From assembly GCA_002104985.1 (NCBI GenBank), contig MCGO01000004.1:682001-746000 (forward strand): DNA of 64,000 bases, written 5' to 3'. How positions within the stretch are numbered: the first letter of the stretch is position 1; every line of letters starts with the position of its first letter. The stretch is from Rhizoclosmatium globosum. Its lineage: Eukaryota; Chytridiomycota; Chytridiomycetes; Chytridiales; Chytriomycetaceae. Position numbers and translations under genes: made by a program. The notes below the pieces were generated by a model. It worked only from the letters and a program-made list of their open reading frames with translations, was not told the DNA's origin and did not search any database. Positions 1,716-64,000 of this stretch are shown piece by piece.

Positions 1716-1909
1716 ATTTCAAGGGAGTCAATCTTGCCACCAGTTTAGTTCGAGCTGCGATGGTTGGCGGTGGTGGCCGTGTTGCTGGAAGACGTGATGC
1801 GGCTGGAATGATGAATTTGGCTGAGGAAGCTGAATTGCGTGCAGGACTCGAGCCAGGAGAGGCTCGTAACGTCAGAGATGATATTACATGCATTGTTGTT
1901 GTTTTTTGA
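1712..1909 (+). pseudogene. C-terminal fragment of a PP2C (PPM) phosphatase
   Basis: This frame reads DFKGVNLATSLVRAAMVGG and ends in RNVRDDITCIVVVF then TGA. That matches the end of PP2C phosphatases of the pyruvate dehydrogenase phosphatase/Ptc5-6 type: an N-A-x-x-L-x-R-x-A helix, then Y/V-RDDITV beta strand and stop. Nothing of the ~300 upstream residues with the metal-binding DGH/DG motifs is present. The fragment starts within the broken USP gene in a different frame, so it cannot make a phosphatase. The part with GGGG and Ala/Glu-rich sequence is more GC-rich than the USP portion. Confidence 0.65.
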
Positions 1910-1944
1910 AGAAAACATTAAAAGAAACTTTTACCAAAATCAGA

Positions 1945-2553
1945 ATGGAGGATTCACCCAAATTCGCAAGAATAGATTCATTCCTCGATCTAGCCATAGA
2001 AGATGATGAAATAGGAGTCGCACATCCATTTGATGGTATGACGGACTGGGATCAAGATGATGTGTGGCATGATGGGCTGCATGAAACATCAAACATGGAC
2101 GCACCAATCGACGTTGATTTGCTAGAGAGCGTAAATTTCAACATTAGTCGCATTGCCATCTCGGAAACTCGGCCTGATAAAGGGAAGGGTAAAGCCGTGG
2201 CTGTTGCAGAAGCCGATACCCCAACCACCCTCTGCCGCCATTTGTTGGCAGGCGGATGTTATCGCTCAGATTGCTGGTTCTCACATGATCTATCTACTAC
2301 AGTGTGCAAATTCTATTTGTCGGGCTTCTGCAGAAAAGGGGATGAGTGCCCCTTTTTACACGAGCGGGAAGAGATTGAAGCCGTTTGGGAACAGCAACAA
2401 GAGCTACATTACGAAGATGACATAAATTTAAAAAACTTTTGTTCAATAAACTTTTGTTCGAAAGTGATAAATAACCCTCAAAATTTTGAAGCAAGTGAGT
2501 TGATCCCCTTCATCCCTTCATCCCTTCCTTCCCAATCTGTGAGGTGTGTATAG
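1945..2553 (+). CDS. CCCH zinc-finger protein, 3' end cut by the giant element
   Basis: From ATG 1945 (MEDSPKFARIDSF) an acidic N-terminus leads to two adjacent CCCH fingers: CRHLLAGGCYRSDCWFSH and CKFYLSGFCRKGDECPFLH. The paired arrangement resembles the N-terminal module of fungal CCCH proteins that often carry a C-terminal SMR domain (nucleic-acid binding); that part is not present. After ~170 residues the frame becomes AT-rich with a repeated AACTTTTGTTC. At about 2470 it enters the left end of element A, where it runs to a TAG at 2551-2553. The last ~28 codons are therefore element sequence. No remainder of the gene was recognised on the other side of the element. Confidence 0.6.
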   Translation: MEDSPKFARIDSFLDLAIEDDEIGVAHPFDGMTDWDQDDVWHDGLHETSNMDAPIDVDLLESVNFNISRIAISETRPDKGKGKAVAVAEADTPTTLCRHLLAGGCYRSDCWFSHDLSTTVCKFYLSGFCRKGDECPFLHEREEIEAVWEQQQELHYEDDINLKNFCSINFCSKVINNPQNFEASELIPFIPSSLPSQSVRCV

Positions 2554-2785
2554 TGGTCCAATTTCATTATGAGTGCTCTATCAACTTTGTACTATCTGCG
2601 ATCATTCCGCAGACACTTCCTCTTTGATTTGGTCCTTCCGGGCCCAGACCACTTACCCCACTCAACAACCCGATAACCTTTCCTCCTTCCCCGCTTCCTT
2701 TTATTTCCTTTTCCATTCCATCAACTACACTGTTTCTTCTTCTCGTGGCTGTCTTTTTGACTCTCGTGTTTGATTGTCTGTGAGG
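2470..2785 (+). promoter_or_regulatory. 5' leader/promoter region of element A
   Basis: About 315 bases before the first plausible start codon, conserved in copy B. It holds a 12-base palindrome at 2479-2490, a pyrimidine-rich run of CCCTTCAT-type repeats (about 2505-2532) and an inverted repeat CTGCG/CGCAG around 2597-2614. No convincing protein-coding exon was seen. It probably contains the promoter and 5' UTR of the giant gene. Confidence 0.4.
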
Positions 2786-5700
2786 ATGGAAATCTCCACA
2801 GAGGTTACCTATTTTTCTCTCCTACTCCTTCATCATCATGATATCATTGACGCTAATCATGTTAAATAGATGTTCAACGTGTCCACTTTCTCTGCCATCG
2901 CAGCTCTGTCCTTATTCAACGTTGTCGTCGTCGGAGGTATGTTCCCTTTCTGCAACACGCAACCACTGACAATACTATTCACAAAGCATTCCATGTTTTA
3001 CACGATATTTCCGACTTTATTTGTCACTGCTTGATGTCTGTAGTTCAAGTCGACTTAATCACGAATTCTCACCACTGGTGTCCCACTACCGTCGGAGGTT
3101 TCCTCCTTTCACTCTGTCTTCCGATTGTTGACACTCAGGTATGTACCCTAGCCATTCAATGGCGACTTGTAATTCTAACATTTGTCCCTTCCACCACAAT
3201 AGGTTACCCTGAAACTGTCAATCTGGTCTCTGGTTACCTTGACCATCTCCTGCCCTCTTCCCTTCTTTCTATTCGTTTGGGAGAAAGAACAACATCAACG
3301 TTCTTTGCGTCGCCAGTTCAAGTTCCACTCAAAATGGCTGAGGAATCATCCTCTCTTTGGGTCTACCGAGTACGAACAGACTAGGAACAAGCACCGCCAA
3401 CACAAGTCGTATGCCAAGAAATCTCTCAAAGCCGTGGAGAAGGAACTGAAGCTCGCTCAACTGGTGGAGCTGCTCTCTGGTTACGAACGACTTGTCCACG
3501 AGATCAAGGTTGCCGAGCTGCTTGCTCGCTATGAGGACCTTGTTTCCCCGCTCTACTCACTACTGGTCTGCTGTGGCTTTATGATTAGTGGATTGTTGGA
3601 CCTCGTCAAGTATGTCTACTCCTCTTGGTTGCGAGTGCCGTCTACATCGCTGTCTGTCAATCACAAGTTCCATCTCTCTGTTATCGTGCCAAATGGCTCA
3701 ATCACGATGGTTCTTGTCTCCAATGATTCAACTGTTCTTGAAGCAAAGCAGGCTGCGTCCTTAACTGTTGGTCTCTCTCTTGTGGGTCTTCAACTGTATC
3801 GACCTGGCCGGCACTGGAAGCGATTGTCCTCATCTCGAACACTCTATGGTAAGTTTTTATTGCGTTCATTGAAATTCGTTGTTGCTTATTCAAGCTCATA
3901 GATCTTGGTCTGAATCCCAGTACTCTTGTGCAGCTTGGACCGCGTTCACAGAGTCAATCAAGGAGTCAATCAAGGAATACCAAGTCATCCACTCTACCAA
4001 CTACTTTCAGCCATCTTGATTCCGTCTTGACCAATCCAGTTATGGATGAAACAACTGTTTTTCGAAATCCTCGTCTGTCACAGACGCGGACCAAGTCTGA
4101 CCCCACCAAGACGACAGCCAAGAATGTTGTTTGCCACCACACTGGGATTTGGTTCGCGGATATAAATCCTCAAGTTTCTCCATCTTGGTCTATCCCTGTT
4201 GACACTTCTCACACTGGTGGTATTGACTCATTCAGTAATTCTCTTCCAGTTGGAAAGCGCACCCATATTCATCTCGAGCATCAACCCAGTTTACCCACTC
4301 TCCCTAAAACCTCCAAACCAACTATACACCACCCACCATTCCCCCCAATTACTCTGCTTGACTTCATTCCACCTCATGTAGTCGCTCGGCTTGGTGAGTA
4401 CTTTGACTCAATCCCTTAACATTTTCCCTAACCTATATCTTATTTAACAGGTCTATCAAAAGCAGCTCAGCTTGTTGACTCAACTTTGACTCAAGGGATT
4501 ACTGTCCCTCAAGGAGACGGTCCACCACCAGAACCACCACCACTTCTTGAACCAGAGACTGTATTGAACACTCAAGCAGCCGGTTATTCACTGGATTCCA
4601 TGTCGCATCAAGATTGGATTCCAACTCCTGAGCTCGCATTGGCCGTATTTGGTTTCTTGGATAACGTCAGTTGTGTTTCCCGGAAAAGGGCCATTATGTC
4701 TGCTTTATTCAAGTCATGGTCACAGCTTGACAAGTGTCCACCATCTATCAATCAAATTGAATTGTTGGATCTGTCTACTACTACTGTTGGAACTGAACAG
4801 CCTTCACTCTCGAGCTTCTTTGTCGAACTGGTGGATGGCCACAATCTGTTTGTCGAAATGCCTTCTATGTTGACTATTCGTGACCTTCGAGAGTTTCTAT
4901 ACCAAGAACGGAACGTGATCTATGCTCTGTCTTGTACTCTTGTGTTTGGCATGATCAAGTTGGAAAACTCGAGCCTTTTGTCTTGTAAGTATTAAACTTG
5001 AAAATTTATTCTATTTTAACCTTCAAAATAGCGTACAACATTCCAACTGACTCGACTCTCAAGTTTGTGGTTCAAGTACGTGGAGGAGCAGATCGTGCCT
5101 CTCGAACTCAAGACAGTGATACGAAGGAGTTCTTGACTAGCTCGGGGTCCAATTCAAATAGTCCGCCATCCCAAAATAATGTGACACCAACAACCGAGCC
5201 AGTTCCATTGTCCACTACTTCATCTGTCGAACCATCAACTCGCAGATCCGATCCACCACCTCCAATTCCGCTTCGTGATGAATCCCATGAAACTCCATCC
5301 TTGGGTGGTTCTTCTGTTGATGGTTCGTCCAACCCTGGTGTTAGTCCATATTCGCTCCAAAACCGTCGTCTGTTCCGTTTCTCTCGCGAATCATCAACAA
5401 ATGTATGGCTGCTGCTTTCTGCGTTTAATATTCCTAAATATTTCTAATGCTTAGGTTTCTGACTTTGGTGTTGGCGAGTTTTCCGCAGCAAGTTCAAACG
5501 TTGACGACTTGGAGTCCACTGGAACTACACCAACAAATCTTGAAGTACAAGAACAAGATCCGATATCAAAAACAAGAAGATTCGCGTTTTCTCCTTTCTT
5601 GGAACCCAAGGCTTCTGTCATTGCTGCCTCCTCTGCTGTATCTCCCACTCTTCCTTTCGTCAGATCTGATTCAAATTTTTCTGATGCTTTGACCGCACCG

Positions 5701-8700
5701 GAACCATCTTTGTTTGTTCCGTACACAGTGTCTGACTCCGAAGCTGATAGTGTGTCTTCACAGTCAGTTCAGTCTGACTTTGATTCTGTGGCTGACGGAG
5801 AGGTAATATTCTTGGTGTTCAAAGGCTAAGTTTAATTATGTACAAAAAGGATGGTGATATCGATTATGAACTACTCAATCAGTTTCAACGTCTTGGTTTC
5901 GATGACTCGGCTTCGGACCTGGACTCTGTCAGTGGACTAGAGGATTTATTGAATGAAACCTCAAGTTTGAATCTGGACAGCTTTGATGCAGTCAATCTGT
6001 TTGAACTGGAGCAAAATCTGGCGGATCTGGATCTTGGGTATGGCACGGCTGCATTCATATCTGCCGCGGGGAAGGCAAAAGGAGCAAAGAAAGCAAAACA
6101 ATCAAAACCAGCCACAAAACCTATCAAAGCAAAAGCAGCCAAACCAAGGAAAGGAAAGGGAAAGCGACTGATTGAGGAGGACGAGGAAGATGATGTACCA
6201 GACGAGATTGACAAAGATCCTCCTTCTGATCCAGTACCAGGGGTGAGTTTTCTACTCTTGTGCTCAAACTAGAATCTAATGCACTGTTTTGTAATAGATG
6301 CCAACACCACTTCCCCGTGTCAAGGTTCCTCAAGGGTCAATCTTTATCAATGCCACTACATCATTGATTCCTCATGAGTTAAAACCCCGTTACCGGTCCT
6401 TTGCTCGAATTTACGACAAGTTCTTGAGTACGTCGCAGTCGATTCTTGAGTGTGAAAGGTTTCTGAATACCATGACTGGGATGCCGCTCCGTCAAGCTCT
6501 TGTTGCCTTTGAAACTCAATTTGGGTTTATTCATCCTGCTGGCGCCGCCATGATTGCTATTCAGGAACGTGTCAAGTCTGTGTCCAAACATAATACCGAC
6601 AATAATATGGAAGGCGAAACAGTGTTTAGTATTGTCCCTCAGTTGTACAAGTGTCCTCAGGGTATGGTTGATGGACTGGATCACTGCAGCTGTTTTACTG
6701 GAGATTGGAGTTATAGTGTGAATCAAGCGACATTTGATGTGCTACAAGAAAGTCATGATGCTTCTGTTTTCTCTCTCGGAGCTGACTTGAATCAGTTGAA
6801 GCAGGAGTTGGTGTTGCGCGGACGTACTATTGTTCCGAGTGTTGTGTTTGTTTTGTCACTGAATAGGTAAGCCTGTTGTTGTTTTGAACTCTTGGTGTTT
6901 TGACTTTGTTTTGGTGTATAGATACCTATTTTGTCCAAAGCTACTTTTTGATCTTGGTGTTTGTGCCGAACCTGTTTTTGGAATCAAAATTGTCAACGTT
7001 GATGCTATCCATGAAGCCATGTACAAAATCTCATTGGCGCTTTTAGTCAAAACGGGTACACCCACTTTTGTCGAAGAAGAAGGAGATGGTGATGGTGATG
7101 GAGGTTTAGTTGGAATTCCAGTCCCAGTTCCAGTCCAAGGTCCAATCCAGGTTCCAGTCCAAGATAGTCCAGTCCAAGATAGTCCAGTCCAAGATAGTCC
7201 AGTCCGAGGTCCAGTCCAAGGTCCAGTCCAAGGTGGAGTTAAGCCTGTCCCTAAAAAAAACTCTGTACTTGGTGGCAGCAGTCGTGATGAGTCAGCTGAC
7301 TCGAACATTGAAAAATGGCCTGAACGACCTCAGTTAGGACTCTGGAAGAAGGAGTATTACGTTCTTCTGGACAAGTTGCAAAATGTGGATAATCGACTTG
7401 CTGAGGTGTTTACTGATCAACACTTTTTGGTATGCATATTATTACTTCTTTGTCTTTTCTAACGAGGTCAATCAGGACGGATTCTGTCCACTATGTTTTA
7501 CAGAACACAAAGGGTCAAGTGATACTGCAACGTTGTTTGCCTTTGAAAACCATATCATGACTCGTCATTTCCATCGACCTGATTCATCTCGACCTCCCTT
7601 TCCATCTCGAGGTTCTTATTCGGATATAAATCTCTTTAACAAAAATCTGGCTGTGCTCATCCCAGATTCACCAGGACCTGGATCATTGGTATGTCTTGAA
7701 TCTCGTCAAAATCATTTTTTATGCTAATAGTTCTATTCATTATAAAAGGAACCGTGTCCCATCTGTCAACTCCATGGACACCCACAAGACTTGCTTCGAC
7801 ATATGATTGATGCGCACTCGACCTATGTTCCTCCTGTTGCCACTGGAGTTCCAACTGTCCCAACTCCTCCCGCTGTTCCGACTTTTCCAGTCATCCTTGT
7901 TGCTCCAGTTGCTCCAGTTGCTCCAGCCGCTCCAACTGCCCCAGCCACTCTTGATCCCAATCCTGCTGATGCAGATGCTCCAATTACAGATTCAAGTACT
8001 ATCACAGTTGTGAACCGACAGCTGGTTGCTGGATCTGATGCTTCTTGCTGTGTCACCAATCTGAGGATTATGGACGCTCGTCTTGTCAACCAGGCTTTTG
8101 AAATGGGATCAAGTTACGTGTATTCCATGAATCACCCCGCCACTGCTGCTCACTCCATGCGTCCAGGAAGTTATCCGATTTGGATCCAAGGTCCTGATGG
8201 GAAAACTTTGAAGCCTCCAAGAACAGCCATGACTGATCGGGAACTCAAACTACATGACTTTATTGTTCTTCGCCAACTACTGGCTACTTGGCAGGCATTC
8301 ACAAATGGAGACCCAAGCGACGCTGACATGACTCGAGTTTATCGTACATTGAAGAATCAAGACAGTACTCAAAGTTATGGTCCGTACTTGGCTCATCGAG
8401 GTGATTTTGCTGCAGCCAATAGGTCCAAATTGAGTGACAGTGAGGCTATGGAGTTGTTTGGTACCATTCAACAGTACAACAAGAAGGGCGGCATCAAGAA
8501 TGTGACTGGTGTTATTGTTGAAACATTTCACTGGACGAATAGTGCAAGGTTGTTGAACACACCAATACATCAACACCGAGTTCAAGTCGCGCAGGACAAC
8601 CAACACCAACTCAATGTTCAAGTTGATGATGTTGGAAATGTTGATGTTGGAGATGTGGATGTTTTGGACCAAAATGAAGATGTTGAGATGAAAGATGTGT

Positions 8701-11700
8701 TTGGTGAGTTGTTTGTTTTCTTTGAGTAAGAATCAAGACTCAATCTTTCAACTAGGACATCCTGTACCCTGTCAGCTGTTCTTTGATAAAGCTCCAATCA
8801 GTCCTACCTCTTTTCGACTTTCCTCAGAACTCTATACAGAGTTGATGGACTTGAGCAAAATATTGTTGATTGGCCTGTCCATGGTGAACAAGAAAGTCAT
8901 TGGTAGGAGCTTCAAGATCCAGAAGAATGGGATGCACCATGTGTTTCAGTCAGCATTGACTACGTTGAATGAATTTCTTCAGACCTTGCCCACCTTTACT
9001 GGTGGGGAATGGTGTTCAGGGTCAATCTTGTTCAAGTCGTACTCAAAAGCACCGGATTTTGGCAAGGAACCCATGAGCTTCTCTGGAGCAACAGAGCTTG
9101 GAGTGGTGTTTTTCAAGAATAGTGATTCCAAGATATCTCATGTGAGCTTTATCCCCTCAGTATCTAATATATTAGATATTAATAGTAATTCAACACATAG
9201 ATTCTACCACTGTTCCAAGTGTTGGCAACTACCACATTCAACCCCACCAGGAACCAACCTGTGACAGCCAAGGTCAAAGTGTTGGGCCTCCATTCTATTC
9301 TGTTTGGAGACAAGGTGGTTCTTCGGGATTTCCGAAACCAGACAACTCATCTGCTCCAAGTTGGCAAACATTCTCATCAGAAACTTCAATTTATTTCTCG
9401 TTCATTCATAAGACCAGGTGGTGACCATGATCCTGTGCTTTGGAGCGAACTGATTTCTCCAGCTTGGAATGATACTCGGAGACGTGTTTGGGGCTACTCT
9501 CTTGCTATGGGGATTCAAGACTTTGTTTCTGGTGCAAGTCTTGAGGCGCCTGAATCTCTTGTATCTGTGTCAGTAACTGGAAGCAAAGCCTCAATCTACC
9601 GCAACAATTTCAACTCTACCGTAAAGAAGCTGTTGTTGTGCCACCCAAAGTTGAAGGATTCTGATGATGTTGTATTGAATGCTGCCATTTCAACTCATTT
9701 TGGTCATGGTCGTGTTGTTCAACCAATGACGTCTCCTCAGTCAATTTCAAAACTGGGATATATCTACATGAGAGCAGCTGTGCAACAATGGTTGCAATTA
9801 AAAGAATCTGTTCCAAATATCAAACAAAAAGTTGATATTGGTGCAACATTAACTCTCAACTTTCAACTGAGTCAAAGAGTTCAGGAACGTTCTGCTGATG
9901 ACGTGTGGGACTTTGTATTTCCACAGCACACCTTTCAAAATCTCACTCTTCAAACCAACGATCAGCCATTGAACTCAAAAGTCCTGAATGTTCGTCCACT
10001 TGTAGTTGCCTTGGATGGGACTAGCTTCAATTTCAAACACACTCATGGATATAAGGGGGCCCACATGTCTGGGGTTATGCCGTCTCAACAAGTTCCTCAA
10101 CTTGATGCCATTCCTTCCAAATGGTCCAATAACAATCAATATGAGGCTTTGTTTCTGCCTCTGTTCAAACATGATGTTGCTGGGAGTGTTGAGACTCAGA
10201 GTGATGATGAAAAGGATGAAAATGTTGAGACAAGGAGTAGTGAAGCTGAGAGTGAAAACGGAGGCATGAATAGTGACAGAGCCAAAGTTGAGGTGAGATG
10301 ATTCAAAGGTGTTTGTTTACTCTAATTCAATTTCTTAGAAACAACCCCGACGCGTGATAAAGACTTCAACGTTTCAACTGACAAAGGACAGATTGAGCAG
10401 GATGCCTTCCAAGAGGATCAAGGAGGAACAAGAAGTGTTGCTGAAACTGGCGTTTGAGAATCGCCGCACTCTTGCTGATGATGTGCCAAAAGAGCAGATT
10501 GATATTGCGTATGTGTTTTCCTTTGGCTTCAAATGACTGGCAGCTAACTCTGAGTAAGATGATGACATCAAACGGAAAAGACCACCAACAATACTTCTTG
10601 AACACATATGTTGCCCATGGTATGTGTATTTGACTGTTTCTGTTTTTGATTCAACCTTTTGATGTTAAAAACTGTGAGCAGGAACTGTCCAGGATGAACA
10701 AGAAAGAAGATTGCTCAAAGCCTACGTAGATCTTGCTACTTTGGCATTTGATACTGTTCGGGTTCTTGTTCCTGGCACCATCAATCTCTTCAACAAGTTG
10801 CATGCTGCCGCATTGAACATCCAACTTGAGGATCTACCTCCCAATGAACAGAATCAGCAACCAGTCCACCAGAGGATCTTGGCTTTTCTGGATTCTCCCT
10901 CTTTCAAACGAAATCAGAGCCCTGAGATTGAGTACAATCGTCTAAGTGCCAACCAACAACCTGGCCAACTACTTGCCATTATTCGTGATCTCTTTGCAGC
11001 TTCAAATTCAAATCCATTGAGAATACTGTTTGATATTGTAAAGGAGCTTGATGGTCTTAAAGTGTCCAAATCTAGTTGCTGGGATCGTATGATTGTTTTG
11101 GCCATATTGCTTGGAGCTGTCAATAAGAATGATTCACATGAAGTCTGGACTGCAGCCATGAGTGATGGTGCTGTTGGATTTGTTACAGAAGATGGAGAGT
11201 TCTGGTATTATCCCACTGAGCATTCCAAGGACCAGCTTGCTCTGTTACGTTTCAGCATCATTACTCTTCTATTGGATCCCAAATCTGGCTTAAATATCTC
11301 TGATAGGGGACATTATCTGGATACATTCTTGAATAAGGATTTATCAGCACTGAAAGTGAGTCTGTACAACCAACTGGAACATGACTTGAGTCAGGAAAAA
11401 GAGGATGCAGACGTTGATGATGATGACAACAGCAATCAAGGAAGTGACAAGGAGGATTATGTTCCGTTCAAATCAGATGAAAAGAAGAAATTGGTTGGGG
11501 AGGTTGTCTATCGGGTCCGACCTGTTCAAAATGATGTCACTCTTGATGATGCTGCCCAAAGGCTTTCACAAAACTTGTTTCCTCGGTTCTATGATTCCAA
11601 TATTCTGTTATCTGCTGGCGAAAGTACCACCACAGATGCCATGGATGTGATTATAGAGACGGGTCCTTTCAACATGGTGAATGGATTTCTGGTTGGAACA

Positions 11701-14700
11701 GACCATCAAGTAACTTTGAATTCTCTGAGCCTGCATGAGCGCTCCATCTACGAGTATATGATGCATTTGCCTGGACATGTGTGGACACTTGAGGACGAAA
11801 ACAAGAGAGTATTGCGGAATGATCGTGAGAAACAGTCACAGAATATGTATCGGCCTTATTTGCATTCAGCCATCATCACTGGAGTCAAGCCTGTTGTTGG
11901 CGGTGACTTTTATTCCAAAGCCCTTTTGCAGTTTTTGGATGCACTTGTTGTGTCTTTTGTTATCAATCCGGTCAAGGAAGTAGATGAAGATGTTCAAGTC
12001 AGAGGTGTTGGTCATGCTCAAGGTGCTCAAGGTGCTCAAGGTGCTCAAGGTGTTCAAAACCAAGCTGTGGAGGGAGTGGAGGAAGACGATGAAGTCCCAG
12101 AGGATACTTCCCAGCTCACTCTTGCTCAACTGCGGACCTCCTTTAAGACTTTGATTCTTCAGTATATCCAGCCAGTGCAGTGGGGCTTGTCGATAAAGAA
12201 AGAAATGCGGCTGGTGCCTTCAACTCCCTACATCAACATCAATCTCCTTTGCCGTGATGATCTCACAAATTTGTTTGAGGATGTTATCAAGTTGAGCAAC
12301 AATGAATACCTGTTGTTTGGGAGAGATGGCTGTTTGGAAAATGAAATTGGTCAACAGCTCAATAACACTGGTGTTGTGCAGCAAGCAGTCCGAAGCGCTA
12401 TTGCTCGTTACAAGACTTGGACCAAAGTTGGACTGAAATTGAGTAAGCTTCTTTAGTTTTCTTCTCAACAACTTTTCTCTAAATTCAATACAAACAACCA
12501 GGAAAACCATTCCATCAGCAGTTCAGTCATTCAAATCGTCGTTATCTCTCTATTGATGGCCACACTATTTTCCCAAAGCTCTCTAGTTCTGAAGTGCGGG
12601 GGTTGCAATCTGCCATCTTTGATCAGCAAAATGAGAAGTTGTCATCACGAAAAATTGAAGCATACTTTCTTGACTCCTGTGATGCACCCACTGGAGACAC
12701 TCCATGGCCACCAACATTCCCGTCCATCAATTTGTGTCACTTGAACTTGATGCGTATGGCGTTAGAAAAGGGCTCTGACAAAAACAAAAGGCTTGTTGTT
12801 CATCCACTTGGTTACAAAATCAAAGCCAGTGCCAAGAATGTTATTGAGCTGCAGTTGATACGGAACTCAACCATCAACTTCCCAACTTCCAAGAATAGAT
12901 TTCTGACCTACCGTCCCGGTGCCATCAGTATTACATATGACAGAGAAACTGGTGTCTTCAAAACAATGCTCCCTCTGCGAAGTCACCACATGACCGAAGC
13001 TGACTTGAAACAAATAACAGCTGACTTCTCTCATTGTGGTTCTCCTCGACGCTATCCAACAACAACAACTCCTGGAGTTAATCGCCATCCTTCTGACATC
13101 AACTTCAATGCAGTCCAAGAGTTACTGGCTGATTCCTTCAAAGCTATGGCAGACACTCGAAAGTTATATGCTGCAAATCCTGGCAACCCCGAAGCCAGAG
13201 AAGAGTATCGACATGCATCGCATTTGGTTGGATACCTTCGGCATCGAATTCAAAATGAGTGTTCTGCCAAGCACCGACGCAAACTGGAAGATGCCATGAC
13301 TGTTTATGCTCGTCAACACAACTTTGGATCATTTCGATATGACTCTAACAAATTGGGTGGAGTTCATGCTGAAGATACTGCTTTATTTGAATCTCATATG
13401 GGTTCTTTTCAAAGTCCTGATGTTTGGATCACAAATCCTTCCGAAGCTGTGCAGTCTGTCTTTCGAAAAGTTTTTGGAACAACTCGTTTATTGTTGAGCA
13501 GTGATCCAGGTGGAAGGACAGTGGAAACTCAGATGGCAAGTACAGGCCATGTTGTTCAGATTGGAGTAGGCTTTGAAGCAGTGATTTGTCGTCTTCAGAA
13601 ACGCATCAGCACTCTTCAATCATTTCGAGACAGAGCCATTGATCAACTGGAGTCAGTGGTGGAGTTACGGAGTCTTGTTGCTGCTGCTGAATTGGATCTT
13701 GTTGAATACGCCGCAGGTGATGCAGTTGTATTGGCGGAGACTTTGCGTCTGGAAAAACTTGTGCTTGAAGCGGAACAGGCACTGGAGTTCAGGTTGAAGG
13801 ATCTGCGTGCATCAGCGAGAATGGTTCCAAAGCCAGCACCCAATGTGCAAGATATGGATGTGCTTGTAGATGACGAGGATCTGGTGGATGGAGTAGGGAG
13901 AGTTGACAAGGAGTTGAAAAAGATGCGTGATAAGTTTGAGGTTGTTCTTGATGGAAATGGTGATGGAGATGACCCCAACCTGTTCTCACGGCTGCTCAAG
14001 AATGCACAAGATAAACTGAACAAGTATGCTCAACGAGTTCGTCGATCTGCTGCAGAATGGAATTCAAGTGCTGATTCTTATGCCACATCCGACTTCAACT
14101 CCAAAACCACCAACAAGAAAACCACTTCTGGAAAAGATGGGATTCCAAGTAAGTTTATTGATTTGTCTTGTTTCTTGTTTCTAAATAACTATTTTCCTCT
14201 TTAACTTAGAATGGGTCAAGACAGTCCTTTCGTATGCGGCCCATGCCTCCATTAGAAAACAGACCACGGTCATGGCCTTCAAAAAGTCGCAGAATGGTGG
14301 CGCATTCTTTACTCCTGGCAGTCTTCTACCAACTGCGGCAAACATCAAGTCTATTATGGGTGAAGGCTTTGATTCAAGGTTTCCACTCAGTGGCAGAATT
14401 GGGAGGATCAAGGCTGTGGTAATTGTAACTGAGGTAAACACTCTTCTACATGTTACTTTATTTAACTCATACACTGTTATTTTCGAAATAGATTGGATCA
14501 ACAATCATGTGCTTTTGCGGCCGCATCTCACGCATCGGGAAGGCCAAAACGTTCAAATGCTCCAACCCACGTTGCAGTGGCCGTGAATTATGTTCACGTG
14601 ATAGTCTCACCTTCCGACTCCCACGTGATATCAAGAGTGGCCTGTTCATTGAGAATCTAACGTGGGCAATAGCATTGATGCGAGTCCATCACCACATTCG

Positions 14701-15061
14701 AGGTGGTGGGACGGGAGGTGCGGAAAACAATGATGGCAACGGCGATCCAGGAGGTGGAGGACCGGGTGGAGGAAGGAGAGGAGGAGGGAGTGGTGGAGTC
14801 AGACGGGAAGGCGGAGGACCAAGTGGTGGCAACAACAACAAACCTCCTCCGGCAAAGAAACAGCGTATTGTTAAAGGTCGTTTAGAGTATGTTGTGGTGG
14901 AGGAGGTGGAAGGGAGATTGGACGAAGGTGGGATTGATCCCACTTCGAGGCAGACTGAGGAGGACTATCCAGTATCTCAGCAAGTGGACAACAAATCTAC
15001 ACACTTTCCTATCTTGCACTTGGCCTCCCTTGGAGCTGCTGGACACGTTAGCGACGTATAG
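2786..15061 (+). CDS. Giant Fanzor/TnpB-like RuvC nuclease, copy A (damaged)
   Basis: About 20 exons join in frame to ~3,700 residues. Start: ATG 2786 spliced to 2871, or ATG 2871. Approximate exons begin at 3044, 3203, 3901, 4451, 5032, 5456, 5851, 6298, 6921, 7474, 7749, 8756, 9201, 10339, 10682, 12502, 14210, 14492. N-terminus: hydrophobic stretches (exons 2871-3300 and near 3560). Then a Ser/Pro-rich region, a Lys-rich patch (6070-6170), two C2H2-like fingers (CPLC...H-x4-H, ~7485; CPIC...H-x4-H, ~7756) and a long unrecognised middle. The nuclease is in the last 15%: RuvC-I SSDPGGRTVETQMAS (Asp codon 13502), RuvC-II VVIVTEIGS (14431), zinc ribbon CFCG...CSNPRC, RuvC-III LPRDIKSGLFIENL (14627), then a Gly-rich tail. 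A 49-base deletion at ~10557 removes a splice acceptor. It could instead be two genes; no internal stop/start pair was found. Confidence 0.65.
7113..7238 (+). repeat. Coding minisatellite, copy A
   Basis: Tandem 12-base units related to GGTCCAGTCCAA encode PVQG/PVQD tetrapeptide repeats after an acidic EEEGDGDGDGG segment. About ten units are present here against about seventeen in copy B, with unit variants (DSPVQDSPV) in both. All length changes are multiples of three, so the frame is kept. Confidence 0.8.
15002..15056 (+). repeat. 55-bp terminal sequence of the giant element
   Basis: The last 55 bases of the giant gene, ending three bases before its TAG (15059-15061), are identical base for base to the reverse complement of 41537-41591. 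The unit contains a small hairpin CTCC-CTT-GGAG (15025-15035) and ends with ACGT-TAGCG-ACGT (15045-15057). In TnpB/Fanzor systems the guide-RNA scaffold overlaps the 3' end of the gene and the element's right end, with the guide just beyond. The position fits that pattern; the RNA itself is inference. Confidence 0.6.
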
Positions 15062-15194
15062 CTGATGTGAGTTTTTTTTTGTATGTCAACAAAGAATCCA
15101 TCCGCTAATTCATTTTTTCGAAGCGCTGTGAAAAGTAATGAGATTGTCAATAAAAACCATGATTTTGTTTCAAATAGAATAGGAAAACTGATTT

Positions 15195-41399: not shown

Positions 41400-41536
41400 T
41401 ACAATAAGAAGGATCAGATGTTTCAGAAATGGTCCAATGAGGAGGACAATGGTTCACGGGCCAAAGCTTGGCAGAAGAAATCGTGGGTGACAAAATCAGT
41501 CGAACTTGGAACTTATTGCAGACACAATCAGCTTTT

Positions 41537-41591
41537 CGTCGCTAACGTGTCCAGCAGCTCCAAGGGAGGCCAAGTGCAAGATAGGAAAGTG
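41537..41591 (-). repeat. Solo copy of the giant element's 55-bp terminal sequence
   Basis: Read on the minus strand, these 55 bases are identical to 15002-15056. Similarity stops sharply at the 5' side (CACTTTCC), so no further giant-gene coding sequence is attached. On the 3' side it fades after GCGACG, although AGCTGAT follows within a few bases in both. The short reading frame HFPILHLASLGAAGHVSD stays open but has no gene context. It lies ~140 bases upstream of the homeobox gene 3 start codon. The rest of 41400-41760 shows no gene. Confidence 0.8.
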
Positions 41592-55686: not shown

Positions 55687-56047
55687 ACAATTAAATAGTT
55701 AAGACATAAATAAATAAATTTTTTGTTCATTAATAACCCTCAAAATTTTGAAGCAAGTGAGTTGATCCCCTTATCCCCTTCATCCCTTCCTTCCCAATCT
55801 GTGAGGTGTGTATAGTGGTCCAATTTCATTATGAGTGCTCTATCAACTTTGTACTATCTGCGATCATTCCGCAGACACTTTCTCTATGATCTGGTCCTTC
55901 CGGGCCCAGACCACTTACCCCACTCAACAACCCGATAACCTTTCCTCCTTCCCCGCTTCCTTTTATTTCCTTTTCCATTCCATCAACTACACTGTTTCTT
56001 CTTCTCGTGGCTGTCTTTTTGACTCTCGTGTTTGATTGTCTGTGAGG

Positions 56048-59000
56048 ATGGAAATCTCCACAGAGGTTACCTTTTCTCTCCTACTCCTTCATCATTATGA
56101 TATCATTGACGCTAATCATGTTAAATAGATGTTCAACGTGTCCACTTTCTCTGCCATCGCAGCTCTGTCCTTCCTATTCAACGTTGTCGTCGTCGGAGGT
56201 ATGTTCCCTTTCTGCAACACGCAACCACTGACAATACCATTCACAAAGCATCCCATGTTTTACACGATATTTCCGACTTTATTTGTCACTGCTTGATGTC
56301 TGTAGTTCAAGTAGACGTAATCACGAATTCTCACCACTGGTGTCCCACTACCGTCGGAGGTTTCCTCCTTTCACTCTGTCTTCCGATTGTTGACACTCAG
56401 GTATGTACCCTAGCCATTCAATGGCGACTTGTAATTCTAACATTTGTCCCTTCCACCACAATAGGTTACCCTGAAACTGTCAATCTGGTCTCTGGTTACC
56501 TTGACCATCTCCTGCCCTCTTCCCTTCTTTCTATTCGTTTGGGAGAAAGAACAACATCAACGTTCTTTGCGTCGCCAGTTCAAGTTTCACACAAAATGGC
56601 TGAGGAATCATCCTCTCTTTGGGTCTACCGAGTACGAACAGACTAGGAACAAGCACCGCCAACACAAGTCGTATGCCAAGAAATCTCTCAAAGCCGTGGA
56701 GAAGGAACTGAAGCTCGCTCAACTGGTGGAGCTGCTCTCTGGTTACGAACGACTTGTTCGCGAGATGAAGGTTGCCGAGCTGCTTGCTCGCTATGAGGAC
56801 CTTGTTTCCCCATTCTACTCACTACTGGTCTGCTGTGGCTTTATGATTGGTGGATTGTTGGACCTCGTCAAGTATGTCTACTCCTCTTGGTTGCGAGTGC
56901 CGTCTACATCGCTGTCTGTCAATCACAAGTTCCATCTCTCTGTTATCGTGCCAAATGGCTCAATCACGATGGTTCTTGTCTCCAATGATTCAACTGTTCT
57001 TGAAGCAAAGCAGGCTGCGTCCTTAACTGTTGGTCTCCTAATTGAAGGCCTCCAACTGTATCGACCTGGCCGGCACTGGAAGCGATTGTCCTCATCTCGA
57101 ACACTCTATGGTAAGTTTTTATTGCGTTCATTGAAATTCGTTGTTGCTTATTCAAGCTCATAGATCTTGGTCTGAATCCCAGTACTCTTGTGCAGCTTGG
57201 ACCGCGTTCACTGAGTCAATCAAGGAGTCAATCAAGGAATACCAAGTCATCCACTCTACCAACTACTTTCAGCCATCTTGATTCCGTCTTGACCAATCCA
57301 GTTATGGATGAAACAACTGTTTTTCGAAATCCTCGTCTGTCACAGACGCGGACCAAGTCTGACCCCACCAAGACGACAGCCAAGAATGTTGTTTGCCACC
57401 ACACTGGGATTTGGTTCGCGGATATAAATCCTCAAGTCTCGCCATCTTGGTTTATCCCTGTTGACACTTCTCACACTGGTGGTGTTGACTCATTCAGTAA
57501 TTCTCTTCCAGTTGGAAAGCGCACCCATATTCATCTCGAGCATCAACCCAGTTTACCCACTCTATCAAAATCCCCCAAACCAACTATACACCACCCACCA
57601 TTCCCCCCAATTACTCTGCTTGACTTCATTCCACCTCATGTAGTCGCTCGGCTTGGTGAGTACTTTGACTCAATCCCTTAACATTTTCCCTAACCTATAT
57701 CTTATTTAACAGGTCTATCAAAAGCAGCTCAGCTTGTTGACTCAACTTTGACTCAAGGGATTACTGTCCCTCAAGGAGACGGTCCACCACCAGAACCACC
57801 ACCACTTCTTGAACCAGCGACTGTATTGAACACTCAAGCAGCCGGTTATTCACTGGATTCCATGTTGCATAAAGATTGGATTCCAACTCCTGAGCTCGCA
57901 TTGGCCGTATTTGGTTTCTTGGATAATGTCAGCTGTGTTTCCCAGAAACGGGCCATTATGTCTGCTTTATTCAAGTCATGGTCACAGCTTGACGAGTGTC
58001 CACCATCTATTGGTCAAATTGAATTGTTGGATCTGTCTACTACTACTGTTGGAACTGAACAGCCTTCACTCTCGAGCTTCTTTGTCGAACTGGTGGATGG
58101 CCACAATCTGTTTGTCGAAATGCCTTCTATGTTGACTATTCGTGACCTTCGAGAGTTTCTATACCAAGAACGGAACGTGGTCTATGCTCTGTCTTGTACT
58201 CTTGCGTTTGGTTTCGTCAAGTTGGAAAACTCGAGCCTTTTGTCTTGTAAGTATTAAACTTGAAAATTTATTCTATTTTAACCTTCAAAATAGCGTACAA
58301 CATTCCAACTGACTCGACTCTCAAGTTTGTGGTTCCAGTACGTGGAGGAGCAGATCGTGCCTCTCGAACTCAAGACAGTGATACGAAGGAGTTCTTGACT
58401 AGCTCGGGGTCCAATTCAAATAGTCCGCCATCCCAAAATAATGTGACACCAACAACCGAGCCAGTTCCATTGTCCACTACTTCATCTGTTGAACCATCAA
58501 CTCGCAGATCCGATCCACCACCTCCGATTCCGCTTCGTGATGAATCCCATGAAACTCCATCCTTGGGTGGTTCTTCTGTTGATGGTTCGTCCAACCCTGG
58601 TGTTAGTCCATATTCGCTCCAAAACCGTCGTCTGTTCCGTTTCTCTCGCGAATCATCAACAAATGTATGGCTGCTGCTTTCTGCGTTTAATATTCCTAAA
58701 TATTTCTAATGCTTAGGTTTCTGACTTTGGTGTTGGCGAGTTTTCTGCAACGACTTCGAATATCGAAGAGTCTACTGGAACTACACCAACAAATCTTGAA
58801 GTACAAGAACAAGATCCGATATCAGAAACAAGAGAAATCGCGTTTTCTCCTTTCTTGGGTTCCAAGACTCCTGTTGTTGGTGCCTCCTCTGCCGCTCTCA
58901 CTGCCTCCTCTGCTGTATCTCCCACTCTTCCTTTCGTCAGATCTGATTCAAATTTGTCTGATGCTTTGACTGCACCGGAACCATCCTTGTTTGTTCCGTA

Positions 59001-62000
59001 CACAGTGTCTGACTCCGAAGCTGATAGTGTGTCTTCACAGTCCGTTCAGTCTGACTTTGAATCTGTGGCTGACGGAGAGGTAATATTCTTGGTGTTCAAA
59101 GGCTAAGTTTAATTGTCTACAAAAAGGATGGTGATATCGATTATGAACTACTCAATCAGTTTCAACGTCTTGGTTTCGATGACTCAGCTTCGGACCTGGA
59201 CTCTGTCAGTGGACTAGAGGATTTATTGAATGAAACCTCAAGTTTGAATCTGAACAGCTTTGATGCAGTCGATCTGTTTGAACTGGAGCAAAATCTGGCG
59301 GATCTGGATCTTGGGTATGGCACGGCTGCATTCATATCTGCCGCGGGTAAGGCAAAAGAAGCAAAGAAAGCAAAACAATCAAAACCAGCCACAAAACCTA
59401 TCAAGGCGAAAGCAGCCAAACCAAGGAAAGGAAAGGGAAAGCGACTGATTGAGGAGGACGAGGAAGATGATGTACCAGACGAGATTGACAAAGAGCCTCC
59501 TTCTGATCCAGTACCAGGGGTGAGTTTTCTACTCTTGTGCTCAAACTAGAATCTAATGCACTGTTTTGTAATAGACGCCAACACCACTTCCCCGTGTCAA
59601 GGTTCCTCAAGGGTCAATCTTTATCAATGCCACTACATCATTGATTCCTCCTGAGATAAAACTCCGTTACCGGTCCTTTGCTCGAATTTACGACAAGTTC
59701 TTGAGTACGTCGCAGTCGATTCTTGAGTGTGAAAGGTTTCTGAATACCATGACTGGGATGCCGCTCCGTCAAACTCTTGTTGCCTTTGAAACTCAATTTG
59801 GGTTTATTCATCCTGCTGGTGCCGCCATGATTGCTATTCAGGAACGTGTCAAGTCTGTGTCCAAACATAATGCCGACAATAATATGGAAGGCGAAACAGT
59901 GTTTAGTATTGTCCCTCAGTTGTACAAGTGTCCTCAGGGTATGGTTGATGGACTGGATCACTGCAGCTGTTTTACTGGAGATTGGAGTTATAGTGTGAAT
60001 CAAGCGACATTTGATGTGCTACAAGAAAGTCATGATGCTTCTGTTTTCTCTCTCGGAGCTGACTTGAATCAGTTGAAGCAGGAGTTGGTGTTGCGCGGAC
60101 GTACTATTGTTCCGAGTGTTGTGTTTGTTTTGTCACTGAATAGGTAAGCCTGTTGTTGTTTTGAACTCTTGGTGTTTTGACTTTGTTTTGGTGTATAGAT
60201 ACCTATTTTGTCCAAAGCTACTTTTTGATCTTGGTGTTTGTGCCGAACCTGTTTTTGGAATCAAGATTGTCAACGTTGATGCTATCCATGAAGCCATGTA
60301 CAAAATCTCATTGGCGCTTTTGGTCAAAGCGGGTACACCCACTTTTGTCGAAACGACAGAAGAAGAAGGAGATGGTGATGGTGATGGAGGTTTAGTTGGA
60401 ATTCCAGTCCCAGTTCCAGCCCAAAGTCCAGCCCAAGGTCCAGTCCAAGGTCCAGTCCAAGCTCCAGTCCAAGGTCCAAATCAGGTTCCAGTCCAAGGTA
60501 GTTCAGTCCAAGGTCCAATCCAGGTTCCAGTCCAAGATAGTCCAGTCCAAGATAGTCCAGTCCGAGGTCCAGTCCAAGGTCCAGTCCAAGGTCCAGTCCA
60601 AGGTGGAGTTAAGCCTGTCCCTAAAAAAAACTCTGTACTTGGTGGCAGCAGTCGTGATGAGTCAGCTGACTCGAACATTGAAAAATGGCCTGAACGACCT
60701 CAGTTAGGACTCTGGAAGAAGGAGTATTACGTTCTGCTGGACAAGTTGCAAAATGTGGATAATCGACTTGCTGAGGTGTTTACTGATCAACACTTTTTGG
60801 TATGCATATTATTACTTCTTTGTCTTTTCTAACGAGGTCAATCAGGACGGATTCTGTCCACTATGTTTTACAGAACACAAAGGGTCAAGTGATACTGCAA
60901 CGTTGTTTGCCTTTGAAAACCATATCATGACTCGTCATTTCCATCGACCTGATTCATCTCGACCTCCCTTTCCATCTCGAGGTTCTTATTCGGATATAAA
61001 TCTCTTTAACAAAAATCTGGCTGTGCTCATCCCAGATTCACCAGGACCTGGATCATTGGTATGTCTTGAATCTCGTCAAAATCATTTTTTATGCTAATAG
61101 TTCTATTCATTATAAAAGGAACCGTGTCCCATCTGTCAACTCCATGGACACCCACAAGACTTGCTTCGACATATGATTGATGCGCACTCGACCTATGTTC
61201 CTCCTGTTGCCACTGGAGTTCCAACTGTCCCAACTCCTCCCGCTGTTCCGACTTTTCCAGTCATCCTTGTTGCTCCAGTTGCTCCAGTTGCTCCAGTTGC
61301 TCCAGCCGCTCCAACTGCCCCAGCCACTCTTGATCCCAATCCTGCTGATGCAGATGCTCCAATTACAGATTCAAGTACTATCACAGTTGTGAACCGACAG
61401 CTGGTTGCTGGATCTGATGCTTCTCGCTGTGTCACCAATCTGAGGATTATGGACGCTCGTCTTGTCAACCAGGCTTTTGAAATGGGATCAAGTTACGTGT
61501 ATTCCATGAATCATCCCGCCACTGCTGCTCGCTCCATGCGTCCGGGAAGTTATCCGATTTGGATCCAAGGTCCTGATGGGAAAACTTTGAAGCCTCCAAG
61601 AACAGCCATGACTGATCGGGAACTCAAACTACATGACTTTATTGTTCTTCGCCAACTACTGGCTACTTGGCAGGCATTCACAAATGGAGACCCAAGCGAC
61701 GCTGACATGACTCGAGTTTATCGTACATTGAAGAATCAAGACAGTACTCAAAGTTATGGTCCGTACTTGGCTCATCGAGGTGATTTTGCTGCAGCCAATA
61801 GGTCCAAATTGAGTGACAGTGAGGCTATGGAGTTGTTTGGTACCATTCAACAGTACAACAAGAAGGGCGGCATCAAGAATGTGACTGGTGTTATTGTTGA
61901 AACATTTCACTGGACGAATAGTGCAAGGTTGTTGAACACACCAATACATCAACACCGAGTTCAAGTCGCGCAGGACAACCAACACCAACTCAATGTTCAA

Positions 62001-64000
62001 GTTGATGATGTTGGAAATGTTGATGTTGGAGATATGGATGTTTTGGACCAAAATGAAGATGTTGAGATGAAAGATGTGTTTGGTGAGTTGTTTGTTTTTT
62101 TGAGGAAGAATCAAGACTCAATGTTTCAACTAGGACATCCTGTACCCTGTCAGCTGTTCTTTGATAAAGCTCCAATTAGTCCTACCTCTTTTCGACTTTC
62201 CTCAGAACTCTATACAGAGTTGATGGACTTGAGCAAAATATTGTTGATTGGCCTGTCCATGGTGAACAAGAAAGTCATTGGTAGGAGCTTCAAGATCCAG
62301 AAGAATGGGATGCACCATGTGTTTCAGTCAGCATTGACTACGTTGAATGAATTTCTTCAGACCTTGCCCACCTTTACTGGTGGGGAATGGTGCTCAGGGT
62401 CAATCTTGTTCAAGTCGTACTCAAAAGCACCGGATTTTGGCAAGGAACCCATGAGCTTCTCTGGAGCAACAGAGCTTGGAGTGGTGTTTTTCAAGAATAG
62501 TGATTCCAAGATATCTCATGTGAGCTTTATCCCCTCAGTATCTAATATATTAGATATTAATAGTAATTCAACACATAGATTCTACCACTGTTCCAAGTGT
62601 TGGCAACTACCACGTTCAACCCCAGCAGGAACCAACCTGTGACAGCCAAGGTCAAAGTGTTGGGCCTCCATTCTATTCTGTTTGGAGACAAGGTGGTTCT
62701 TCGGGATTTCCGAAACCAGACAACTCATCTGCTCCAAGTTGGCAAACATTCTCATCAGAAACTTCAATTTATTTCTCGTTCATTCATAAGACCAGGTGGT
62801 GACCATGATCCTGTGCTTTGGAGCGAACTGATTTCTCCAGCTTGGAATGATACTCGGAGACGTGTTTGGGGCTACTCTCTTGCTATGGGGATTCAAGACT
62901 TTGTTTCTGGTGCAAGTCTTGAGGCGCCTGAATCTCTTGTATCTGTGTCAGTAACTGGAAGCAAAGCCTCAATCTACCGCAACAATTTCAACTCTACCGT
63001 AAAGAAACTGTTGTTGTGCCACCCAAAGTTGAAGGATTCTGATGATGTTGTATTGAATGCTGCCATTTCAACTCATTTTGGTCATGGTCGTGTTGTTCAA
63101 CCAATGACGTCTCCTCAGTCAATTTCAAAACTGGGATATATCTACATGAGAGCAGCTGTGCAACAATGGTTGCAACTAAAAGAATCTGTTCCAAATATCA
63201 AACGAAAAGTTGATATTGGTGCAACATTAACTCTCAACTTTCAACTGAGTCAAAGAGTTCAGGAACGTTCTGCTGATGACGTGTGGGACTTTGTATTTCC
63301 ACAGCACACCTTTCAAAATCTCACTCTTCAAACCAACGATCAGCCATTGAACTCAAAAGTCTTGAATGTTCGTCCACTTGTAGTTGCCTTGGATGGGACT
63401 AGCTTCAATTTCAAACACACTCATGGATATAAGGGGGCCCACATGTCTGGGGTTATGCCGTCTCAACGAGTTCCTCAACTTGATGCCATTCCTTCCAAAT
63501 GGTCCAATAACAATCAATATGAGGCTTTGTTTCTGCCTCTGTTCAAATATGATGTTGCTGGGAGTGTTGAGACTCAGAGTGATGATGAAAAGGATGAAAG
63601 TGTTGAGACAAGGAGTAGTGAAGCTGAGAGTGAAAACGGAGGCATGAATAGTGACAGAGCCAAAGTTGAGGTGAGATGATTCAAAGGTGTTTGTTTACTC
63701 TAATTCAATTTCTTAGAAACAACCCCGACGCGTGATAAAGACTTCAACGTTTCAACTGACAAAGGACAGATTGAGCAGGATGCCTTCCAAGAGGATCAAG
63801 GAGGAACAAGAAGTGTTGCTGAAACTGGCGTTTGAGAATCGCCGCACTCTTGCTGATGATGTGCCAAAAGAGCAGATTGATATTGCGTATGTGTTTTCCT
63901 TTGGCTTCAAATGACTGGCAGCTAACTCTGAGTAACTTTTAGGGATATGACTGCAGCTCAAGCTGATATGATTCTTGAGCGCAAGATGATGACATTAAAC
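56048..64000 (+). CDS. Giant Fanzor-type protein, copy B, N-terminal ~2,300 residues
   Basis: Same exon plan as copy A: ATG 56048 or 56129, with every splice signal of the corresponding copy A exons preserved. Where copy A is deleted, this copy has an intact junction: donor GCGTATGT near 63887, acceptor CTTTTAG at about 63942. The exon continues DMTAAQADMILERKMM. That makes B the better guide to the true protein. The N-terminal hydrophobic segments, both C2H2-like fingers and the PVQG repeats are present. The reading frame of the ~61161-62642 exon pair also stays open through the intron. Whether the RuvC domain is intact cannot be seen. Confidence 0.65.
60396..60612 (+). repeat. Coding minisatellite, copy B (expanded)
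   Basis: About seventeen 12-base units related to GGTCCAGTCCAA, encoding PVQG/PAQG/PVQD tetrapeptides. Longer than in copy A by whole units. The units are contiguous without spacers, which distinguishes the array from a CRISPR. Confidence 0.8.

What the first reader, a model, noticed from the sequence alone, without database searches (positions are those of the whole stretch)
2470..15063. Fanzor-type nuclease buried at the end of a ~3,700-residue protein in a 12.6-kb element
Sequence: about 20 exons can be joined without a stop, and the last three contain RuvC-I (DPGGRT), RuvC-II (VTEIGS), a zinc ribbon and RuvC-III (RDIKSG) in TnpB order. Knowledge: known Fanzors, including the RNA-guided one from the chytrid Spizellomyces punctatus, are roughly 600-1,500 residues. 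Inference: this is a giant Fanzor lineage with unknown accessory domains ahead of the nuclease, not described to my knowledge.
Basis: partly seen in the sequence, partly recalled or inferred. Interest (0 to 1): 0.92.

Follow-up and report, generated by a model that had tools for sequence, protein, structure and literature searches.

The report
Giant Fanzor-like mobile element in chytrid
A chytrid fungus carries many copies of a 12.6-kb mobile element whose single, heavily spliced gene encodes a protein of about 3,700 residues that ends in what looks like a Fanzor (eukaryotic CRISPR-cousin) nuclease, with a conserved RNA-like segment at the element's edge; if confirmed it would be a Fanzor-type protein several times larger than the usual kind.

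Summary
Window 2473-15071 is one copy of a repeated element of a chytrid, almost certainly Rhizoclosmatium globosum. Seven aligned copies (one 5'-truncated) share one gene of about 21 exons and 3,700 codons; most splice sites are conserved between copies about 68% identical, exon indels are nearly all multiples of three, dN/dS is 0.23. Two copies (c190a, c13) show no lesion; the window copy lacks a splice acceptor (49-nt deletion). The C-terminus has the published Fanzor fingerprint, DPG plus a glutamate six residues before the first zinc-site Cys, then RD; all three persist in a 22-25%-identical relative. Beyond the finding: a ubiquitin-like domain; 27 sites with the 19-nt right terminus, many 5'-truncated; and a 3'-terminal 236-nt segment 89-92% identical where other coding sequence is about 69%, overlapping the ORF end with local dS near zero and a tolerated frameshift: an omegaRNA candidate or cis-acting end.

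The parts
2473..15071 (+). mobile element copy; right end exact (...GATGTGAG|T), left end uncertain (2425-2473)
   Evidence: junctions of window, c334b, c190a-c and other copies compared
2870..15061 (+). single gene, about 21 exons: 2870-2936, 3044-3138, 3203-3848, 3902-4393, 4451-4984, 5032-5402, 5455-5802, 5850-6242, 6298-6427, 6497-6866, 6922-7429, 7476-7688, 7749-8703, 8756-9141, 9201-10292, 10339-10508, 10555-10619 (damaged start), 10682-12442, 12502-14148, 14210-14433, 14492-15061
   Evidence: acceptors of exons 2, 13, 14 and 17 are not at the aligned place in all copies. The exon 18-19 junction is in database protein P0006; P0002 of R. globosum has the 19-20 and 20-21 junctions and then skips 18 residues of the Gly-rich tail
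3665..3942 (+). possible first ubiquitin-like fold (by eye only; no Pfam match), interrupted by intron 3849-3901
   Evidence: read from sequence (for place); Pfam 0 families (protein 2)
4816..5090 (+). ubiquitin-like domain ending ...VRGG|A (intron 4985-5031 inside)
   Evidence: PF00240: 5.8e-10 in copy c13, 4.2e-9 in c413a, 2.9e-5 (24.2 bits, cut-off 25.4) in c334b
7485..7817 (+). two zinc-finger-like motifs (CPLC...H...H; CPIC...H...H), intron 7689-7748 between
   Evidence: sequence; zf-Di19 0.0059, below cut-off
10504..10560 (+). place of the 49-nt deletion in the window copy, which removes the conserved acceptor and start of exon 17
   Evidence: alignment with six other copies
13503..13520 (+). 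RuvC-I-like DPGGRT (candidate catalytic D = 13503-13505)
   Evidence: invariant in the 4 sequences of A1
14425..14503 (+). RuvC-II-like VTE|IGST across intron 14434-14491 (candidate E = 14431-14433), six residues before first Cys
14510..14575 (+). zinc-binding-like C-x-C ... C-x4-C
   Evidence: two of four Cys absent in distant relative L078
14624..14641 (+). RuvC-III-like RDIKSG (candidate D = 14627-14629); this RD, not the earlier SRD at 14597, is shared with L078 and P0007
14836..15071 (+). 3'-terminal DNA/RNA-constrained segment, omegaRNA candidate; hairpins 14923-14947, 14955-14980, 14984-15000, 15044-15069
   Evidence: 89-92% identity vs 68-70% for other coding sequence and 55-57% for introns in 4 diverged copies; local dS 0.055 vs 1.06 gene-wide and tolerated frameshift; hairpins
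55729..64000 (+). second copy of the same element, runs out of the window
   Evidence: 98% over its first 334 nt; 98% over the nuclease region beyond the window
41527..41591 (-). short fragment of the right-end region (terminal bases altered)
   Evidence: 97% over 65 nt

Best explanation
This is a family of 12.6-kb DNA elements of Rhizoclosmatium that encode one giant spliced protein with a Fanzor-type (DPG + relocated glutamate) RuvC nuclease at its C-terminus. Shown: multi-copy, one gene under purifying selection, motif and its conservation, sharp right end, frequent 5' truncation, constrained 3' segment. Inferred: the 3' segment is transcribed as an omegaRNA scaffold, whatever flanks the right end serves as guide, and the giant protein uses it to cut matching DNA, helping the element persist or spread as proposed for TnpB/Fanzor. 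The ubiquitin-like domain ending in Gly-Gly may be a processing or recruitment module (inference). The mobilising enzyme is unknown: either the uncharacterised middle of the protein or a factor in trans.
For: About 21 exons conserved in 7 aligned copies, one of them 5'-truncated; dN/dS 0.228 over 3,590 codons, dN 0.000 over the 30 codons around E and the zinc site (c334b vs c13). D, E and RD kept in relative L078, whose exon-18, -19 and -20/21 counterparts match c13 at 22-25% identity, E 5e-15, 1e-13, 4e-19 in one-against-one BLASTP; E and RD kept in Podochytrium P0007. DPG + E six residues before the zinc motif is called the molecular fingerprint of Fanzors (PMC10711439 section 23). 0 of 20,000 shuffles have the (post hoc) motif. 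3'-terminal 236 nt 89-92% identical in 4 of 4 diverged copies measured. SpuFz1 has a ~75-nt conserved ncRNA with a 14-15-nt variable 3' extension and 'ghost' loci with RNA but no protein (PMC10432273 passages); here too short right-end-only copies exist.
Against: No TnpB/Fanzor match in Pfam or in the PDB by sequence or profile. Profile comparison with another E-x6-C family of the same genome gave 4.8% probability, over the coil only (both alignments very shallow). Zinc spacing is CxC/Cx4C; about 291-295 residues lie between D and [ST][ST] against a published 125-275. L078 lacks two of four Cys. Hairpin covariation is weak: 2 pairs with double-sided changes, equalled in 14 of 500 shuffles and by the +2 slide, and one of the two comes from L059, whose end is not intact; RNAalifold found none. 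No expression data. No transposase domain recognised by Pfam.
Confidence: 0.6

Rival explanations
1. The C-terminal motif is convergent: the giant protein is a novel transposase-like or structural protein whose zinc/RD region is not a RuvC nuclease.
For: No profile match to any TnpB/Fanzor family; odd zinc spacing; two Cys lost in L078.
Against: D, E and RD conserved together in diverged lineages, correct order, exact E-x6-C spacing, 0 of 20,000 shuffles with a post hoc pattern.
Confidence: 0.22
2. The conserved 3' segment is a DNA end recognised by a mobilising enzyme (Helitron/IS91-like one-ended replication starting at the right end), not a guide RNA; the element resembles the one-ended Fanzor1 elements CRe-1/2/3 of Chlamydomonas.
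For: Right end constant and left end variable; a 9-pair hairpin in the window copy 2 nt inside the end; CRe-1 shows 5' truncation and 3' overabundance (PMC3627910 section 8); the genome has Helitrons, 18 matches over cut-off.
Against: The end is ...GTAAG|T, not CTRR (CTRR recalled). The 20 listed Helitron matches lie on none of the ten contigs that hold the 27 sites of the 19-nt terminus, and all 27 are among this family's 34 right-end-region matches. The outer hairpin pair is broken in 15 of 18 rows. The constrained stretch is about 150-236 nt, long for a terminus. This and an omegaRNA may both be true.
Confidence: 0.35
3. Copies spread by target-primed reverse transcription using LINE machinery in trans, the RNA being unspliced.
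For: 5' truncation; target-site duplications in two short copies (17 nt with 1 mismatch; 25 nt with 2) beginning 7 and 24 nt after the right end; right flanks shared for 12-28 nt then diverging between copies.
Against: 16 of 18 insertions tested show no convincing duplication at the junctions; introns are kept in the truncated copy c179; no poly(A) tail seen.
Confidence: 0.2
4. Two or more adjacent genes joined by the gene model.
For: No RNA data; database proteins found from these loci are fragments of at most 723 aa.
Against: Open frame through every junction in the two copies without seen lesions, introns at most 170 nt in the modelled copies; the relative L078 has co-linear counterparts of exons 14/15 and 18-21.
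Confidence: 0.1

Closest known systems
Fanzor1 (e.g. SpuFz1 of Spizellomyces punctatus; GtFz1, PpFz1)
   Same: DPG at RuvC-I, E six residues before the zinc site, RD at RuvC-III, inside a mobile element of a chytrid, conserved segment at the right end, short end-only copies.
   Different: About 3,700 residues and 21 exons against mostly 600-700 residues (PMC11423790 section 4) and, for SpuFz1, a 2.1-kb single-ORF locus with inverted repeats (PMC10432273 passages). No detectable sequence-profile similarity; ubiquitin-like domain; unusual zinc spacing; no terminal inverted repeats of note found.
CRe-1/2/3 Fanzor1 elements of Chlamydomonas (Helitron2-associated)
   Same: Multi-exon gene; constant 3' end with 5'-truncated copies; duplications on truncated copies (PMC3627910 section 8).
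   Different: Duplications in 2 of 18 here against about 70% of CRe-1; no Helitron-type end; far larger gene.
TnpB of IS200/IS605 (ISDra2)
   Same: Proposed use of right-end RNA overlapping the gene's 3' end (overlap recalled).
   Different: TnpB typically has a hydrophobic residue, not Pro, at RuvC-I and the glutamate ~50 residues before the zinc site (PMC10711439 section 23); no sequence match.
Relative L078, same genome (C334:101800-107200)
   Same: Co-linear homology to exons 18-21 and, further upstream, exons 14/15; D, E, RD kept.
   Different: 22-25% identity; two of four zinc Cys missing.

Membership tests
Fanzor/TnpB | RuvC-I DPG (Fanzor fingerprint, PMC10711439) | tested here: met
   DPGG in 7 of 7 modelled copies; NDPG at the aligned place in L078
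Fanzor/TnpB | glutamate six residues before the zinc motif (Ealt) | tested here: met
   E-IGSTIM-C in 5 of 7 models; in win and c190a the automatic model skipped this exon start, but the DNA encodes it. TE kept in L078 and P0007
Fanzor/TnpB | C4 zinc ribbon, CxxC...CxxC | tested here: inconclusive
   four Cys present but C-x-C and C-x4-C; L078 has D and T at two of them
Fanzor/TnpB | RuvC-III RD | tested here: met
   second RD shared by the family, L078 and P0007; P0005 lacks the stretch in its database model
Fanzor/TnpB | D-X(125,275)-[TS][TS]-X-X-C4 spacing (PMC3627910) | tested here: not met
   D to E 289-293 residues in the 5 models where both were found, so X is about 291-295; a coil-like insertion lies between
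Fanzor/TnpB | detectable profile similarity to known members | tested here: not met
   Pfam and PDB searches negative; NCBIfam not scanned (errored)
Fanzor/TnpB | RNase H fold bringing D, E, D together | not testable with these tools
   job failed, predictor switched off
Fanzor/TnpB | omegaRNA from the right end | tested here: inconclusive
   constraint and hairpins seen; no RNA data; in Rfam only 4 sub-gathering matches
Helitron | Rep/helicase protein and CTRR end | tested here: not met
   no such Pfam domain in the pieces scanned; end is GTAAG|T
LINE (non-LTR retrotransposon) | reverse transcriptase, target-site duplications | tested here: not met
   no RT in the pieces scanned; duplications in 2 of 18

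The most novel reading that the evidence does not exclude
A self-contained RNA-guided mobile element: one ubiquitin-bearing giant protein is both the mobilising enzyme and an omegaRNA-guided nuclease, the mobile intermediate carries the right end plus 7-28 nt of flank (the guide), and the short right-end-only copies are guide-RNA 'ghosts' scattered by the same process, so that the guide repertoire itself spreads.
Probability: 0.13. Interest if true: 0.92.

Novelty: new variant of a known kind. Interest (0 to 1): 0.72.

Why it matters
Most Fanzor1 proteins are 600-700 residues (PMC11423790 section 4). A 3,700-residue relative would show that RNA-guided nucleases were built into far larger eukaryotic proteins, possibly with ubiquitin-pathway links, and would escape current detection: no Pfam profile sees its nuclease and the database proteins found are fragments. 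With 20 copies that match the nuclease region over 1.9 kb or more and diverged relatives, it could help address an open question: what Fanzors do for eukaryotic elements.

Tried and rejected
Pfam on single exons and joined pieces: no nuclease match. PDB sequence and profile searches: coil-like or chance matches, or none. Protein search with the long query (lengths about 2,050-6,500): none at E 1 or below. hhalign to the L069/L077 family: no support (both alignments are very shallow, so a weak test). Conservation-weighted gene finder over-split poorly aligned linkers and was set aside. Terminal inverted repeats: none of note. Target-site duplications as a general rule: rejected, 2 of 18 (2 of 17); a third weak match (c413a) lies 65 and 95 nt from the junctions, and c21's gapped match was not counted. 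Shared left-flank repeat as a target family: only short matches elsewhere. Empty sites were not searched. The one cross-pair flank score of 57 is most likely the c190c flank overlapping the neighbouring fragment's flank (by coordinates). One search scored only 6 of 63 candidates and was not used for counts. In one search five of seven copies were used (window and c190a left out because their automatic last-exon model skipped the exon start). A1 has 4 rows, A2 12, A4 18, A5 4, A7 6; A3 had a mis-set range and was replaced by A4. Five of the 33 rows (L059, L061, L062, L063, w41) have no intact end and were left out of the count of next bases.
Full report
What is there. The window lies in contig C334 of a 56.9-Mb genome of 420 contigs. 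The host is almost certainly Rhizoclosmatium globosum: the database protein P0002, named R. globosum, comes from a contig of 88,952 bases, the length of contig C63 here; this is an inference from one length plus the match. The finding is one member of a repeated family: the stretch 11600-14000 has 24 matches, 20 of them 1.9 kb or longer. The last 62 bases plus 14 of flank have 34 matches in the genome, not all reaching the end; 27 sites match the terminal 19 nt with at most 2 mismatches (reversed control pattern: 0), and all 27 lie among the 34.

Boundaries. The right end is sharp: copies and fragments agree up to ...GCTGATGTAAG (or GTGAG) and then diverge; of the 28 entries with an intact end the next base is T in 27, c190a being the exception (my count; five rows without an intact end left out). 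The left end is less sharp: window and c334b share from 2445, others begin at about 2473, and the stretch back to about 2425 resembles the flank of L035. No terminal inverted repeat of note.

One gene. A codon-usage and splice-site search joined 21 exons. Projection to six other copies shows GT at all donors but those of the truncated part of c21, and AG at most acceptors. The departures are the acceptors of exons 2, 13, 14 and 17 in some or all other copies, where models find neighbouring AGs, and one acceptor (exon 10) that is AA in c334b. For exon 17 it is the window copy that has lost 49 nt. Modelled copies are 3,662-3,768 codons with the stop; six of seven have no internal stop, c63 has four. 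These models can step round lesions: c413a has a 5-nt deletion in exon 15 and c21 lacks the 5' part. c190a, with its last exon read in full (3,731 aa), and c13 (3,767 aa) show no such lesion. dN/dS is 0.228 (c334b vs c13, 3,590 codons) and 0.23-0.38 in four other pairs. Of database proteins, P0006 contains the exon 18-19 junction, and P0002 follows the c63 model through the 19-20 and 20-21 junctions and then skips 18 residues of the Gly-rich tail; they are annotations, not transcripts.

Domains. A ubiquitin-like domain (PF00240, 5.8e-10 in c13 and 4.2e-9 in c413a, just under cut-off in c334b) ends in Gly-Gly-Ala. An earlier region looks ubiquitin-like to me but has no Pfam match. Two CxxC..H motifs are zinc-finger-like (sub-threshold). 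Hydrophobic stretches near the N-terminus look like membrane segments by eye; no predictor was run. A 918-residue middle piece has no Pfam match.

The nuclease-like end. In copy c334b: D3249 (DPGG), E3538, Cys 3545 and 3547, C-x4-C, RD with D3584. Fanzors are described as having DPG and a glutamate six residues before the zinc motif, a combination in under 1% of TnpB-family proteins (PMC10711439 section 23); both are met. A relative in the same genome, L078, found by its 36% match to exons 20-21 (E 9e-10), matches exon 18, 19 and 20-21 counterparts of c13 at 22-25% identity (one-against-one BLASTP E 5e-15, 1e-13, 4e-19) and keeps DPG, TE and the second RD, but not the first RD nor two of the Cys. 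A weak match to the exon 14/15 region lies upstream of it (E 2.4e-4). Podochytrium P0007 (41% identical over 60%) keeps E, four Cys and the second RD; it does not reach RuvC-I. Against this, no sequence or profile search reached TnpB or Fanzor, the D to [ST][ST] spacing exceeds the published 125-275 (PMC3627910 passages), and the fold could not be tested. I therefore call it Fanzor-like and do not file it as a formal member.

The 3' segment. Window 14836-15071 is 89-92% identical in four diverged copies (c413a, c13, c63, c21) against 68-70% for the other coding sequence and 55-57% for introns. Over 28 codons ending about 25 before the stop dS is 0.055 (gene-wide 1.06; c334b vs c13), and c13 ends in another reading frame than c334b, in line with a 1-nt gap in the alignment that c21 shares. 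So DNA or RNA, not only protein, is conserved there; exchange between lineages could add to it (mosaic ends). Four hairpins pair in 92.5% of 452 cells against 32-39% in slid controls, but the structure was drawn from one sequence; two pairs change on both sides, equalled in 14 of 500 shuffles and by one slide, and one of the two rests on L059, whose end is not intact. RNAalifold predicted a partly different structure without covariation. Rfam gives only 4 matches, all below gathering score. Single-strand folding is mildly better than shuffles (z -1.71 and -2.06). SpuFz1's omegaRNA is likewise near the right end with a variable 14-15-nt 3' extension (PMC10432273 passages).

Mobility. Copies c21, c413b and c179 and several fragments are 5'-truncated with the same 3' end. 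Target-site duplications stand out in 2 of 18 insertions: L058 and a fragment beside c190c, beginning 7 and 24 nt after the right end. Several copies share 12-28 nt of right flank and then diverge; c413b and L054 share 40 with one mismatch, c21 and L045 at least 60 and are probably one duplication. Whether these stretches were carried along or chosen as targets is open. One-ended spread with 5' truncation was reported for Fanzor1 elements CRe-1 to 3 (PMC3627910 section 8). The genome holds Helitrons, 18 of 20 listed matches over cut-off.

Literature. Searches of the open-licence PMC library: Fanzor+chytrid 1 paper, Fanzor 82 of which 40 listed, Fanzor+Rhizoclosmatium 0, BCR33DRAFT_727891 0, TnpB+Chytridiomycota+transposon 0, Fanzor+ubiquitin 18, ten seen in listing only, none on this by title. 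Most subscription papers are missing from it. Read: PMC3627910 section 8 and passages; PMC10711439 sections 23-24 and passages; PMC11423790 section 4 and passages; PMC10432273 passages.

Verdict. Real, unusual and, within these searches, undescribed; nuclease identity likely but motif-based; RNA guidance a well-motivated inference.

Noticed in passing
L078 (G000:C334:101800-107200): Highly diverged relative (22-25% identity) of exons 18-21, with a weak exon 14/15-like match upstream at C334:100508; keeps D, E, RD but lacks two zinc Cys.
   Followed up: partly
L064-L068 (e.g. C63:48880, C413:86914): A separate TnpB-like family: five sub-threshold PF07282 matches ending CHHCG...DRDRNAARNIW in open frames of 737-741 aa.
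   Followed up: partly
L069, L077 (C89:41717, C201:187420) and six more places: Another family (two members read) with E-x6-C and GRD but DIG instead of DPG at the possible RuvC-I.
   Followed up: partly
P0001 (Rhizoclosmatium hyalinum): Database protein that fuses the element's last exons to a glycosyl-hydrolase-like domain (PF00150); annotation artefact or captured exon.
   Followed up: no
window 55729-64000: Second, 98%-identical copy of the element; no right end was found for it.
   Followed up: partly
window 1882-2553: CCCH zinc-finger gene whose open frame runs into the element's left end; the insertion may have altered its 3' end.
   Followed up: no
3' ends of c63 against c413a: In the window 14750-15000 bin c63 is 93% and c413a 80% identical to the window copy: mosaic 3' ends, suggesting exchange between lineages.
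   Followed up: no
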